Assembly (NCBI RefSeq): GCF_000001735.4
Contig: NC_003070.9
Location: 12,332,001 to 12,396,000 of the forward strand
Reading direction: 5' to 3'
From: Arabidopsis thaliana
Lineage: Eukaryota > Streptophyta > Magnoliopsida > Brassicales > Brassicaceae
Length of the DNA stretch: 64,000 bases
Position 1 is the first letter of the stretch, and the number at the start of each line of letters is the position of its first letter. Of the stretch, positions 1,046 to 7,000 are shown one piece after another. The notes beneath the pieces were generated by a model. That model ran no database searches and was not told the origin of the DNA. It was given only the letters and a program-made list of their open reading frames with translations. Made by a program: the position numbers and the translations under genes.

Positions 1046-4000
1046 TCAAAGAATGTTGCATGGAGTAATTGGCGGCAACGGGATGTGAATCTTAAGCGCC
1101 AGGTTCAGCTCGTTGTTTTCTTGTGTCATCTTGCTTAGCGCTTTTTCTTGCGCCTCCGCAGCATCTTTGAGCTTCTTCTCCAACTTAACAAAATATACTC
1201 AGAGCTTGTTAATATTGGAAAACCGGAAGTAGTCATATAAGATTTATGATCATATCTTTTACCTGCTCTGACATTTGTTTCAAATTCTCCTTATACAATA
1301 TAAGTGACTGATTCTTCATTTCAGCTGCACATTCTTCTGAATAGTTCTTTGATTCCAGCTCCTCATGATGCTTCCTTAGTTTCTCTGACTCTTCCTAAGA
1401 TACCACGAGATTTGATCATTTTAAAGTTTCAAAAATATCTGAGGAGAATATATGCAAGAGATTTTTTCACCTTTATCATATGATATGTATCATCGGTATA
1501 TGCTTCTCCACACTTGCTCCTTCTGATATCATCTACTAGGGAGAGAAGCTTATGGACTTGCTCTGCTTTTTTGCCTTCATCATGAGTCTTGTTATCGATC
1601 ACAACCTTTCGGTTACTAGACATCCTCATCACTTCCTGTAATTCAAAATCTTATATAATAAGAGAAGGTTTTTCCTAACTTTGCCTACTAATGCGACATT
1701 TGGCACTATACTTTGATGACACATGTACTTATCATTAATTGTAGTTTGACTAAAATAATTTATTAATAGATATATTAAATATTTAGAAAAATAGTCATTA
1801 AACTTTGAAATTACTTCATATTAAACTACAATTTTGAAATGAATTTTCTTCTAGCATAATTGCAACTCCCTTAACTAATTACAAAATCAAATCTTTAAAA
1901 TTTTGACATGATATTATGTTTTAGGGGGTGTTATTCGTGTATGATTTCAAAAGAGTTTTAGTGATTTAAATTGTCATGTAAAATCTGTTGTTATTCAATC
2001 AAGATTTTTTAAAAGTATGTTAAATTTTTGTGTTATTCATTTAAGATTTGTAAAAAGTAATCTAAACTCTTCATAAATTTTGGGTTATTAGATTCATACT
2101 TTTATAAAGTCATTAAAAGTTTTGTGTTATTCAATTAAAACAAAAAAATCTTTGATTGTTAATGATTGTTAATGATTTAAATTATTGTGTTATTGGTTAT
2201 GATTTCCTACATTTTTCTTCACAAAATGAAGTCATGAAAAGTCATGGAAAGTATTATCAAAATAAAGAGATTGTTTGAGAAACTTTACAAGATTATGAAA
2301 AACTAATCAACAAGATTATAAAAAACTCTCTAACAATCGTTTAAAATCTTTCATTTCTTTATTTTCAAGGATTTAATTGAAGTCATCAAAATTCCTTGTA
2401 AATTAGGAACCAATAAGACTGCACATTAATAGTTCACTACTATAAATTATCCTCCAATTTTATAAGAAAATTTTCCATCTTTAGTTTTTTTTTTTTAAAA
2501 CCTTAATTAATTAAAATAATTTTGTATCAATATTATATGATTAAAAAATTAAAAATATGTTAAAATTTGATATCTTACTTTTGCTCATATTTTAACAGTT
2601 TTTCTTTTTCTATGTTATTTATGCATGTATATATTAATAAACATATCATATCTTATTTTTACAAAATAAATGTATGATAAAGTAAATTACAAAATAATTT
2701 GTTGATATAAACTCATACATAATAGTTCCAATTCATTTTATTTTGTAAGTGACAAACTAATTTGTTTTCTTATAAAATCATATGAATTTTAATATAAAAG
2801 TTTTTTTTTTTAAACCCCAAGGACAACTTCTATCTTTTAAATTTATTGTGTTTTACCCATATAACAACATAAGATATATATACATGAATATAGTGCAAAA
2901 TGATGAGAGAATGATTATTTATAAGATGGTAATGAAAAATTGATTATCGAGATGTATTTAAACAAAAAAGAATAACAGTGTAAGGTTCATAATCTAAAAT
3001 TAAAATTTAGAATTAAGTGTTTACAATAATATTTTTTAAACTCATAACAACAACAAGAAAAAAACTTAAAACTAAACAAAACAATATTTAAGATACGGTG
3101 GAAGGGGATGAAGAAATGAGAGAATGAGAGAATGTATATATTTATAGGATGAGAAGTGATGGAAGTTACAATTTAAAAATAAATTGTGGGAGTTAATTTT
3201 TAATTTATTTTGTGTTGAATAAAATGGTGTGGAGAAATATAATTAATTTATATATATTTATGATTTCAGGTTTGTAAATAAATTGTGGTAGTTAATTTTT
3301 AATTAATTGTGTGTTGAATAAAGTAGAGTGGAAAAATATAGTTGATACATATTTTTTTGATTTCAGTTTTATATTAAACTGTGTGTTAAATAAGTTATTT
3401 ATTATTTATATAAATTTTAAAAAAACTTATATTGCCAAGTGGACCATTAAGGAAAGAGTGAAACTTTACTTTTATATATATGATTCCTAAGTTTTTGGTT
3501 TCATTTATTGTTGCCATTACATCACATATAAATAATAACAATTGTTATATAATATTAAATTAATTATATAAAAACATTATGGTTTCAATTTATAAAAGCT
3601 TATAACATTTAACTTAGAGACATATTTTCCCTACTTTTTCCCATCATTTGAAGTTAAACATAAATAAAACTATATTTATGCTAAATAATAAAACAAAAAC
3701 AATTAGAATTTTATTTCACCGTCTTATCTGTTTGGAAATCTAATAATAACAATTGTTTGACATTTCATTTATTATAATAAAAAATAAAAATATTTATTTC
3801 TATTCAACCTATATTGAAACTCATGTGTAATGGATTCATGGAAATATCTAATAAAAGATAAATAAAAAAAAGTTTAACAGTAATCTTAAACTGTTGAAAG
3901 CAAATTACCATAATGAAAAATTTTAATTTGTATAATTCAAAATCATGAATCAAATGTTTTATTAAACATGCTGCGTATTAATTGTTTTAATATAACTTTT

Positions 4001-7000
4001 GAGGAAAAATCCAGTAAAAAAAAATCTTCAAGGTGACAAATTTTTTATGTAATATCAAATATCAATTTATTTTTGTTGTTTAAGTTCTTAAAAAGAATAT
4101 TTAATTTATTCTAATTTAACTTACATTTACTTAAAGTATTGTTGATCATTTGGAAATTGGGTAGTGACATGACGTCTTTCACTATATTTATCAAATTTTA
4201 TATGATTTAATTTTCCCTTTGAACCGATATTCTGAGATCTTTAGTCAAGTAAGAGAATTTTTCATTGAGAGACATCTTAAATCATATGCTTTAAATTTTC
4301 ATATGTGAAGAAGGTTTATTTATTATTTCGACTTTCAAGACAATTGGTAATACATGTATTTGCATTTTCACAAAAAATAATATTTTAAGTTAAAAAAAAA
4401 AAAACATACATTTTTCACGAAAAAACGGAAAATAAACTATAGTGCATTGAAAACTCTTAAAAACTAAATTATCTTTTTTAAAGACATCACAATTTGTAAA
4501 CATCAAAATTAATATTTTTAATTACTTTCGAGTTTTCTATTAATAATTATAGATAAATTTTATATATAGTTTGTTTTTTTAGTACACTTATCATATTTTA
4601 TGTGACTTTTGTTTTCTTCAAAACTGACATTCTTAGATCTTTAGTTAAGTTGGTAGATTTTCCATTGAAACTTATTTTAAATTATAGGCTTTAAATTTTT
4701 AAACGTGAAGAAGGTTCATATATTTTTGAAAAATTCTTTCTAATACCCTTTTCATGATGACCCTTTTCAACTCTATCCTTTTGTTTTATCCATTTTGTTT
4801 CTACCCTCTTTAAATTTTTAATGACCATTTTACCCTTATTTGGAAATTGTTTTAGATTAACAAAATGAAATATTAATATTTTTCCGCCTAAAATATTCCA
4901 AAATAAATTTCCCGCCAAAAATTTTCAAAAAAAAAATTCCGCCAAAAATTTTCAAAAAACAAATTCCCGCCAAATTTTGTTTTCAAAAATATTTTTCCCG
5001 CCAATTTTTTTTTTGGCGGGAAATAGATTTACAAGGGATTTTTAAAGAGTTTTAAAAGATTTACAAGAGATTTTAAAGGGGTTTTATAAGATTTACAAGA
5101 GATTTTAAAAGGGTGATTTACAAGGGATTTTAAAAGGTTTTTAAAATATTTACAAGAGATTTTAAAAGGGTTTTAAAAGATTTACAAGAGATTTTAAAGA
5201 GATTTAAAAGATTTACAAAGGTCTTTTAAAGATTTTTAAACGGTTTAAAATTATTTTAAAATGATTTTAAAATATTTACAAGGGATTTTAAAAGGGTTTT
5301 ACAATATTTACAACAGATTTTAAAGGACTTTAAAATATTTACAAAAGATCTGTAAAGATTCTTAAAGGGTTTAAAAGTGTTTTGAAAGATTTACAAGAGA
5401 TTTTAAAACCTTTTAAAATTACTTGTAAATTTTTTAAAACCCTTGTAAATCTTTTAAAATCTCTTTTAAATCTTTTAAAACCTTTTTAAAATCTCTTGTA
5501 AATCTTTTAAGACCCTTTTAAAATCCCTTGTAAATCTATTTGCCGCAAACAAATATTTACAAGGATTTTTAAAATTATTTTTTTGGCTCAGAAAAAATTT
5601 GTTACGGAACAAAAAATTTGGCGGGAAACTTTTTTTTTGGCGGGAAAAAAGTTCGGCGGGAAATCTTTTTTGGCGGGAAAAAAAAATTTTGGCGCCAATA
5701 AATTTGGCGGGAAAAGTTCAGTTTCCAATTACATGTTTCTATTAGATGAGGGTAATTTGGTCATTTTGTTCAAGAGAAAGGGTATTTTTAAAAATGGACA
5801 ACATAAAAGGGTAGTAAAAAAATGATAGTTTTACAAATCTCCCTCTATTTTTTGACTTTCAAGACAATTGATAATACATGCATATTCATTTTCACAACAA
5901 AAAAAAATACATTCTTGAATATTTTAAGTTCTTATATAGTAAAATATACTGTTTTCACAAAAAAAAAAAAAAATCAGTTTAGTGCATTGAACATTTTTAA
6001 TCAACTAAAGTGTCTTTTTAACACATCATAATAATTTGTAAACATCCAAATTGAAATTTTATTTAATTTTGAGCGATATATTAACAATTTTTAAATAAAT
6101 TATATATATAACTTAACGTCTTTCAATATATTTATAAGATTTTATATGACTTATTTTTTTTGAACCGACATATAAAATCTTTAGTCAAGTTAGAGGGTTT
6201 TTCATTGAAAGTTATCTTAAATCATAGGTTTTAAATTTTTAAATGTAAAGAAGGTTCATCTATTGTTTTGACTTTCAAGAAAATTGGTCATACATGCATT
6301 TGCAATTTTACAAAAACAAATACTGAATAATTTCTGTTTATTTTTTTGGAAGAAAAACATACTGTTTCACAAAAAAATAATTTAAAATTGAGTGCATAAC
6401 TTTTAATCAACTAAAATGTCTTTGTAAAAAGCATCTTGTAAACATCAAAATTGCTATAATTAATTATTTTGAGCGAATATATAATCCACGCATCGCGTGA
6501 CAACTTCTAGTATACATATATTTTTAAGAATCATATAACTAAAATTTGGTATTTTAAAAATCATTATATCCAAAGTACCGACCTTTATGAAAGTAGGGCA
6601 ATCTCTACCCAAATAATCTTCTAGTGTCTCCTTGCACTCTTCTAGCACGTCACCACCGGTGAAAACAACGACGACATAATCAAGAATTTGACTCCCAAAT
6701 AGAGCCTGTAAGGTTCTAAGTGTGTTCTCTTCCTCTTGAGTAATTCGAGTCCTTGCAGATAAAACTAAGAGCACAGCATGTATCCCTCCTTCTGCTAGAG
6801 TTAGACATCTAACAATCTCTTTACTTATATACTCAGCCGACACTGACAAGTCAAACAGACCTGTCCCATATTAAGCAAGCAACTGGTGATATTTTTGAAA
6901 TCAATTGGAATGACAAAATCATAATCCCAAATCAATCCAAGATTCATGTAACAATATACCTGGAGTATCAATCACATTGATTTTGTGACCATCTTTTGTC

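What the first reader, a model, noticed from the sequence alone, without database searches (positions are those of the whole stretch)
4909..5713. Nine E2F-like sites packed in one foldback transposon
TTCCCGCC/GGCGGGAA occurs nine times in 805 bp, in two clusters placed symmetrically in the element. Amplification of E2F sites by Brassicaceae transposons is established; a cluster this dense inside the intron of a defence gene could titrate E2F or bring cell-cycle control to IAN7.
Basis: partly seen in the sequence, partly recalled or inferred. Interest (0 to 1): 0.75.

Follow-up and report, generated by a model that had tools for sequence, protein, structure and literature searches.

The report
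Foldback transposon with twin E2F-site arrays
A small parasitic DNA element inside a plant defence-type gene carries nine cell-cycle (E2F) binding sequences in two end clusters; nearly every copy of this small element examined carries them, but the larger protein-coding relatives do not at the ends read, so the clusters look like an extra that the small elements picked up.

Summary
In detail: nine exact TTCCCGCC sites lie in 805 bp, against 0.04 expected from dinucleotide shuffles of the same stretch. The element is window 4728-5843 (1116 bp), with a 9-bp target duplication and an empty counterpart site. It fits the known Arabidopsis foldback MULE family FARE (its 1.1-kb class; family description recalled). 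It sits in a Helitron in a 4.9-kb intron of an AIG1-type GTPase gene. Of 49 complete copies examined, 48 carry sites, 42 in both arms; all 231 sites lie subterminally. Five coding relatives of about 15-17 kb share 80-110 nt of the termini but have no exact site in the 450+ nt read at either end. hAT-like elements carry the same 12-mer in arrays. Amplification of E2F sites by Brassicaceae transposons, E2Fa and RBR occupancy, and titration are published; I saw this only in reviews. I found no support for cell-cycle control of IAN7. What I did not see in print is the confinement of the arrays to the non-autonomous class. I favour a selfish E2F-docking module; that function is inferred.

The parts
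4728..5843 (+). Non-autonomous foldback MULE (FARE, 1.1-kb class), 1116 bp; the longest stop-to-stop ORF touching it is 104 aa (not domain-searched)
   Evidence: Boundaries from an empty Helitron site (L044) and from terminal motifs shared by the family; 40 places scored by similarity; 49 complete copies examined; ORFs
4719..4727 (.). Target-site duplication, left copy TATATTTTT (one mismatch to the right copy)
   Evidence: the empty site reads TCTATTTTT once
5844..5852 (.). Target-site duplication, right copy TCTATTTTT
4909..5022 (.). Left E2F cluster: four exact TTCCCGCC (4909+, 4964+, 4995+, 5015-)
5620..5713 (.). Right E2F cluster: five exact GGCGGGAA (5620, 5639, 5655, 5672, 5706) plus TTGGCGCC at 5689-5696
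4728..4813 (+). Left terminal segment, homologous to the left end of the 15.5-kb coding relative
   Evidence: 77% over 86 nt, E 2e-13
5732..5843 (-). Right terminal segment, homologous to the right ends of coding relatives
   Evidence: 75-83% over 78-112 nt with 11 of 11 right ends examined; the query was a consensus of 20 FARE right ends, not this copy alone
5023..5550 (.). Internal foldback core made of repeats of about 31 bp in opposite orientations
   Evidence: the repeat finder families D2/D9 and inverted pairs I1-I4
6487..6511 (+). Helitron 3' end: hairpin CACGCATCGCGTG followed by CTAGT (Helitron hallmarks recalled); the foldback element is nested in this Helitron
   Evidence: 1 match, 0.00 expected; related copies with and without the insert
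1636..6582 (-). Intron of an AIG1-type GTPase gene that holds both mobile elements; exon 2 lies above it (ORF to 6870, its own 5' border not determined), exon 3 below it (from 1635)
   Evidence: Splice motifs; PF04548 on the exon 1, 2 and 3 ORFs and on joined exons 2+3 (E 4e-52)

Best explanation
The feature is a non-autonomous MULE foldback transposon of the FARE kind (1.1-kb class). It shares about 80-110 terminal nucleotides with coding relatives, presumably the part their transposase recognises, and just inside them it has, on both sides, an array of canonical E2F sites (TTTCCCGCCAAA, with TTGGCGCC interleaved on the right) that the coding relatives lack. The arrays spread because the element spreads. 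Most likely mechanism (inferred): E2F/DP, with or without RBR, docks on both subterminal arrays in cycling cells and makes the ends accessible in S phase, when a transposon can gain copies, which favours the non-autonomous element as a substrate for a transposase made elsewhere. Inside IAN7 it is probably a passive hitch-hiker, spliced out with the intron. Shown: element, duplication, nesting, site counts, subterminal placement, absence of exact sites from the coding relatives' ends. Inferred: that the arrays were gained by the small class rather than lost by the large one, binding at this copy, benefit to the element, and no effect on the gene.
For: Nine sites against 0.04 expected. Empty site plus duplication. 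Among 30 copies scanned for a 9-bp duplication 12 gave a perfect one, 3 (the window copy among them) one mismatch, 5 worse, 10 no usable pair of ends; mixing left and right flanks of different copies gave 0 perfect in 380. 48 of 49 complete copies have at least one site, 42 of 49 in both arms; sites lie only 155-393 nt from the left end or 130-309 nt from the right end; orientation mirrored (left + 103, - 27; right - 95, + 6). The 24 of these 49 that were fetched because of their terminal 20-21-mers all have at least one site (one of the 24, L056, also overlaps a similarity hit). Coding relatives: 0 exact sites in 5 left ends and 11 right ends read. Genome: 3089 octamers against 517 for the reversal; 679 same-strand pairs 5-35 nt apart against 5. 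The 12-mer TTTCCCGCCAAA recurs in elements with other termini: 152 of 231 FARE sites, 9 of 9 in a hAT-like element with TIR and 8-bp duplication (L048), 17 of 19 in L080, 6 of 6 in L049, which favours a shared host factor. Reviews report E2Fa binding to such transposon sites and RBR occupancy at transposons carrying the motif (PMC12595863, PMC7956360).
Against: No binding, methylation, expression or transposition data were available. The coding relatives exist in several copies without the sites, so the arrays are not needed for mobility. Motif columns were only slightly better conserved than their surroundings in the left arm (5 of 141 shifts as good) and not in the right arm (50 of 212). One complete copy has no site and seven lack sites in one or both arms. 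The commonest one-step variants are C>T and G>A changes, as expected of ordinary decay. The interiors of the coding relatives were not read. The family assignment rests partly on a recalled abstract.
Confidence: 0.55

Rival explanations
1. The arrays are a host-side silencing handle: E2F-RBR (with polycomb or histone-modifying partners) is recruited to transposons through these sites and represses them; the sites persist because the element is tolerated where it is silenced.
For: Review PMC7956360 section 8: about a third of chromatin-bound RBR in Arabidopsis is at transposons, most RBR-bound transposons carry an E2F motif, and loss of RBR derepresses some.
Against: A silencing handle gives the element no reason to gain arrays on both sides, and loss by mutation would be favoured, yet 48 of 49 copies keep sites. 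No long ORF touches the window copy, so there is little to silence.
Confidence: 0.2
2. The octamer is the target of a transposon-encoded DNA-binding protein (transposase or a VANC-like anti-silencing protein); the likeness to E2F sites is incidental.
For: VANC proteins, which have a DUF1985 domain, bind short motifs in fast-evolving tandem arrays in non-coding parts of VANDAL MULEs, and one VANC also acts on a TE unrelated to VANDAL (PMC5735166 passages). A DUF1985/Ulp1 MULE exists here and is nested in one FARE copy. The coding relatives have, by eye, a different tandem repeat at the same place.
Against: The coding relatives with FARE-like termini lack the octamer at the ends read. The same 12-mer occurs in hAT-like elements. 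The motif is the full canonical E2F site (consensus recalled).
Confidence: 0.12
3. Neutral hitch-hiking: a subterminal stretch that happened to contain the octamer was multiplied by slippage and conversion between foldback arms and then copied by transposition; any E2F binding is accidental.
For: Spacings are irregular (commonest 14, 28, 19, 31, 52-53 nt); right-arm conservation is not above its surroundings; variants follow C>T decay.
Against: The same 12-mer in arrays of elements with different termini and a genome-wide pair excess of 679 to 5 are hard to get by chance.
Confidence: 0.25
4. Intronic enhancer: the arrays put the AIG1-type gene (IAN7) under E2F control.
For: Position inside the intron; transposon-borne E2F sites near genes in A. 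thaliana are reported to be polymorphic between ecotypes (PMC12595863 passage).
Against: AT1G33950 moves with AIG1 in the one stress table seen and is listed with a defence gene in another; no cell-cycle link seen, though no targeted search for one was made beyond; the array is nested in repeats.
Confidence: 0.05

Closest known systems
FARE foldback transposons of Arabidopsis (Windsor and Waddell 2000; text not held, abstract recalled)
   Same: Recalled: 1.1-kb elements made almost wholly of modular inverted repeats of about 550 bp, 9-bp target duplications, a larger class up to 16.7 kb with a transposase-like gene. Measured here: 1116 bp, two 558-nt halves, 9-bp duplications, coding relatives of 15,396-16,731 bp. 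[quoted passage not shown]
   Different: I do not recall E2F sites in that description and could not check the text. Here the arrays are in the small class and not at the ends of the large class.
E2F-site amplification by Brassicaceae transposons (Henaff et al. 2014; text not held)
   Same: E2F sites multiplied by hAT, PIF/Harbinger and MULE MITEs and Helitrons, able to bind E2Fa, dilution of E2F proposed (PMC12595863 and PMC13317346 passages); 73% of consensus sites in Arabidopsis in transposons (PMC7956360 section 8).
   Different: The passages seen do not name FARE, paired subterminal arrays or the contrast with coding relatives; the original may.
KAONASHI (KI) MULEs (Hoen et al. 2006, via PMC6117577 and PMC2528002 passages)
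   Same: Non-TIR MULEs with a Ulp1-type protease opposite to mudrA; an element of this plan is nested in a FARE copy (L056).
   Different: That element has its own termini and its own 9-bp duplication TATAAATTT; it is a passenger inside FARE, not its coding form.
VANDAL MULEs with VANC target arrays (PMC5735166 passages)
   Same: Short motif in tandem in non-coding parts of a MULE.
   Different: Different motifs (YAGTATTAY; AGTTGTCC/AGTTGTAC) and a TE-encoded binder; the FARE motif is a host E2F site also found in hAT-like elements.

Membership tests
FARE foldback transposon | Long modular inverted repeats making up a ~1.1-kb element | tested here: met
   1116 bp; halves 85% identical as inverted repeats over 486 aligned positions
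FARE foldback transposon | 9-bp target-site duplication | tested here: met
   Window copy 8 of 9 with an empty site in a related Helitron; of 30 copies scanned 12 perfect, 3 with one mismatch, 5 worse, 10 without a usable pair of ends; 0 of 380 perfect in the mixed-flank control
FARE foldback transposon | Larger class, up to 16.7 kb, with a transposase gene and related ends | tested here: met
   Five elements with both ends found; the three with a duplication measure 15,396, 15,491 and 16,731 bp, two show none; MuDR DNA-binding domain in one; transposase matches of 42-43% identity, one of the five with stops. Interiors not read
FARE foldback transposon | Sequence identity to the published FARE1/FARE2 records | not testable with these tools
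   No named FARE sequence was held; paper not held
Mutator-like elements (MULE) | Termini shared with an element that encodes a MULE transposase | tested here: met
   Left end 77% over 86 nt, right ends 75-83% over 78-112 nt
KI-MULE (KAONASHI) | Same termini as the Ulp1-coding element | tested here: not met
   The coding stretch in L056 has its own ends and a perfect TATAAATTT duplication inside a FARE copy; its left part recurs elsewhere in the genome
E2F-site array | Match to the E2F consensus, denser than chance | tested here: met
   9 observed, 0.04 expected
E2F-site array | Bound by E2F in vivo | not testable with these tools
   No ChIP or DAP data on hand; reported for transposon sites in general (review passage)
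VANC-type target array | Element family encodes the array-binding protein | tested here: inconclusive
   The coding relatives lack the motif at the ends read; their proteins were not tested for binding and their interiors were not read

The most novel reading that the evidence does not exclude
The small, protein-less FARE class gained twin E2F arrays that its own coding relatives do not have, in parallel with unrelated hAT-like elements: convergent evolution of an S-phase docking module by transposon parasites, which would give non-autonomous elements an edge over the autonomous ones and, as a by-product, spread cell-cycle sites through the genome.
Probability: 0.3. Interest if true: 0.65.

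Novelty: new member of a known kind. Interest (0 to 1): 0.42.

Why it matters
That plant transposons multiply E2F sites is known; why they do so is not settled in what I read. A family in which the parasite has the arrays and the coding relative does not, both in one sequenced laboratory genome, is a natural test: if the arrays help transposition, FARE should depend on E2F and its coding relatives should not. For the gene in the window the finding is ordinary: a large repeat-filled intron.

Tried and rejected
1. L056 as the coding form of FARE. At first I took the 8.75-kb stretch between FARE ends at C5:10.2 Mb, with MuDR/MULE and DUF1985/Ulp1 ORFs, for the autonomous partner with E2F arrays as its promoters. 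One search showed the interior repeated elsewhere, and one search found a perfect 9-bp duplication TATAAATTT around it. It is a KI-type MULE nested in a FARE copy; the promoter model was dropped. Notebook entry 2 still states the wrong reading; entry 5 corrects it.

2. L054/L055 (C2:6.717-6.730 Mb, 13 kb between FARE ends): the long ORFs look like an LTR-retrotransposon insertion (by eye, no domain search), not a coding FARE.

3. Fetching the ends of three more transposase copies by guessed distance (five stretches) gave no FARE end and no site.

4. Selection on the octamer: weak on the left, absent on the right.

5. A first pattern with an exact 3-nt spacing after AAA found 0 matches in the genome; the spacing is variable.

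6. Promoter/terminator scans, structure prediction and Rfam were not used; they do not bear on a plant intronic repeat.

7. Rows dropped before counts: one spurious pairing (L057:200-6724, 7 sites) of 50; 18 of the 66 loci given to one search had no recognisable pair of ends and are not in the 49 (48 loci; L058 gave two). Every one of those 18 shows at least one octamer in the stretch counted. Searches list only the first ~100 places; their totals are whole by the tool's statement.

Full report
1. The observation. TTCCCGCC on either strand occurs nine times in the window, all in 4909-5713, where the whole window would be expected to hold 0.34. Shuffles of the stretch itself that keep its dinucleotides give 0.037 on average and never more than 1 in 2000. 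Counting every TTSSCGSS place, there are ten in the element, the tenth being the palindrome TTGGCGCC at 5689.

2. What the element is. The stretch between 4728 and 5843 is absent from a related Helitron copy at C1:9.547 Mb, where left and right flanks overlap by nine bases reading TCTATTTTT; the window has TATATTTTT and TCTATTTTT on either side. The ends are GAAAAATTCTTTC and the reverse complement of GGGAGATTTG. Of 30 copies scanned for a 9-bp duplication, 12 gave a perfect one, 3 (with the window copy) one mismatch, 5 two to five mismatches, and 10 no usable pair of ends. The scan picks the best of several offsets, so I ran a control: left flanks against right flanks of other copies gave 0 perfect in 380. 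The interior is a foldback of ~31-bp repeats, and the two halves match as inverted repeats at 85% over 486 positions. A genome search by similarity scored 40 of 306 candidates, which fall at 40 places; 74 left ends and 145 right ends match the terminal 21-mer and 20-mer with up to two mismatches, some of the right ends belonging to the coding relatives.

3. Nesting. The element lies in a Helitron whose 3' end (hairpin plus CTAGT) is at 6487-6511, and the Helitron lies in an intron, 1636-6582, of a gene on the minus strand whose exons carry the AIG1 domain (PF04548; joined exons E 4e-52). The locus name AT1G33950/IAN7 is recalled. FARE has entered this Helitron group at least twice: the copies at C1:10.53 Mb and C1:19.94 Mb hold an insert at a different position and share its right-hand junction with each other.

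4. Sites across the family. From 66 loci given to the script, 49 complete elements were recovered in 48 loci (18 loci gave no pair of ends; one spurious pairing dropped). They hold 231 exact sites and no reversed-control octamer. 48 of 49 have at least one site, 42 of 49 have sites in both arms, and none lies outside 155-393 nt from the left end or 130-309 nt from the right end. Of these copies 24 were fetched for their terminal 20-21-mers and not for likeness to the whole window element (one, L056, also overlaps a similarity hit); all 24 have a site. The window copy's nine is the maximum, shared with L009, L011 and L072. One-step variants are mainly C>T and G>A. Motif columns are slightly better conserved than their surroundings in the left arm (5 of 141 circular shifts as good) but not in the right (50 of 212); I do not claim selection from this.

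5. The coding relatives lack the sites. Right ends that share the FARE terminal sequence (75-83% over 78-112 nt, 11 of 11) were read at 11 places, about 650 nt inward each; 0 of 11 contains the octamer or any one-mismatch form, and FARE's own array region finds no match there. In its place stands, by eye, a different tandem repeat. Five of these lie, in the right orientation, 11.4-13.5 kb from transposase matches of 42-43% identity to a MULE transposase (coordinates; one of the five has stop codons). For all five the left end was then found on the far side of the transposase; four are 96-98% identical to the fifth, which is 77% like FARE's left end over 86 nt. Lengths are 15,396, 16,731 and 15,491 bp for the three with a 9-bp duplication (two perfect, one with one mismatch); two have none. 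One left region encodes a MuDR DNA-binding domain. Reading 454-2361 nt inward from the five left ends shows 0 exact sites in 5 and a single one-mismatch form in one of them. As yardstick, 47 of 49 FARE copies have an exact site within 450 nt of the left end and 43 of 49 on the right. The interiors of the large elements were not read. So what FARE shares with its coding relatives is the outer ~80-110 nt, and the arrays begin just inside it. Whether the small class gained them or the large class lost them is not decided by this; gain is the simpler reading because the coding relatives have another repeat there.

6. A wrong turn. I first took the ORFs in L056 for FARE's own genes. They belong to a KI-type MULE with its own 9-bp duplication nested in a FARE copy. 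The arrays are therefore not that element's promoters.

7. Other families. TTCCCGCC occurs 3089 times in the genome against 517 for its reversal, with 679 same-strand pairs 5-35 nt apart against 5 and 289 triplets against 2. Most of the ~100 listed triplets are 27-28-bp tandem arrays. One such element (L048) has inverted termini TAGGGATGTCAAAAT... and an 8-bp duplication GTTTAGAG, as hAT elements do (recalled), with nine sites, all nine in the 12-mer TTTCCCGCCAAA. L080 has the same kind of left terminus but a worn right end and no duplication seen, with 17 of 19. The FARE set holds 152 of 231 in that 12-mer. The same long site in elements with different termini argues for a host factor, and the canonical E2F/DP site is the obvious one.

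8. Literature seen. Passages of two reviews (PMC12595863, PMC13317346) and one whole section of a third (PMC7956360 section 8) summarise Henaff et al. 2014 and RBR chromatin work: E2F sites multiplied by hAT, Harbinger and MULE MITEs and by Helitrons, able to bind E2Fa, possibly diluting E2F; 73% of consensus sites in Arabidopsis in transposons; about a third of chromatin-bound RBR at transposons, most with E2F motifs. The originals were not held. FARE's description is recalled; PMC3169594 confirms the MULE transposase (passage). Searches with FARE, foldback and E2F terms showed no paper on E2F sites in FARE among the rows listed (20 of 181; 8 of 8; 15 of 36); this covers only the open library and not the two key papers.

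9. Mechanism. Shown: a mobile element with twin E2F-consensus arrays just inside the segment it shares with coding relatives whose ends lack them. Inferred: E2F/DP docking at the arrays helps the element, most simply by opening its ends in S phase. Host silencing through RBR and neutral hitch-hiking remain open. For the gene, removal with the intron is the default; AT1G33950 behaves as a defence gene in the two tables seen, alongside AIG1 in one, and nothing I saw ties it to the cell cycle.

10. Verdict. Observation confirmed and highly non-random; general interpretation already in print; the claim about IAN7 unsupported. The part that I did not see in print is the confinement of the arrays to the non-autonomous class.

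Noticed in passing
L056:914-8608 (C5:10.198-10.206 Mb): A KI-type MULE (MuDR and MULE domains on one strand, DUF1985 and Ulp1-type protease ORFs on the other) is inserted in a FARE copy with a perfect TATAAATTT duplication; a second genomic copy (C5:18.47-18.48 Mb) has a 99% identical, uninterrupted transposase stretch.
   Followed up: partly
L086-L096, first ~450 nt from the right end: The coding FARE relatives carry, where FARE has E2F sites, a different tandem repeat (CTCCGATTTCACTCAAAATCGCCGACGAATTTC-like units, by eye) of unknown meaning.
   Followed up: partly
L098 (left end region of the 15.5-kb element): Tandem units containing CTTTTAAAATCCCTTGTAAATT lie upstream of the transposase and match FARE's core repeat over 26-27 nt at 96%, suggesting where the core came from.
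   Followed up: no
window 4000-6511; L044, L046, L047: The host Helitron is itself built of ~400-bp repeats, and two separate FARE insertions are found in copies of this Helitron group.
   Followed up: partly
L038:480-501 (C3:12.092 Mb): A FARE copy starts within about 20 bp of the left end of a coding relative, as if inserted at its edge.
   Followed up: no
window 1900-2450: Another AT-rich, palindrome-like repeat lies in the same intron and looks like a further MITE (by eye only).
   Followed up: no
L049 (C1:55.5-56.8 kb): A third E2F array, of ~27-bp units, sits between GGGTACCC-rich repeats and lacks the TAGGGGTGTCAAAAT terminus.
   Followed up: no
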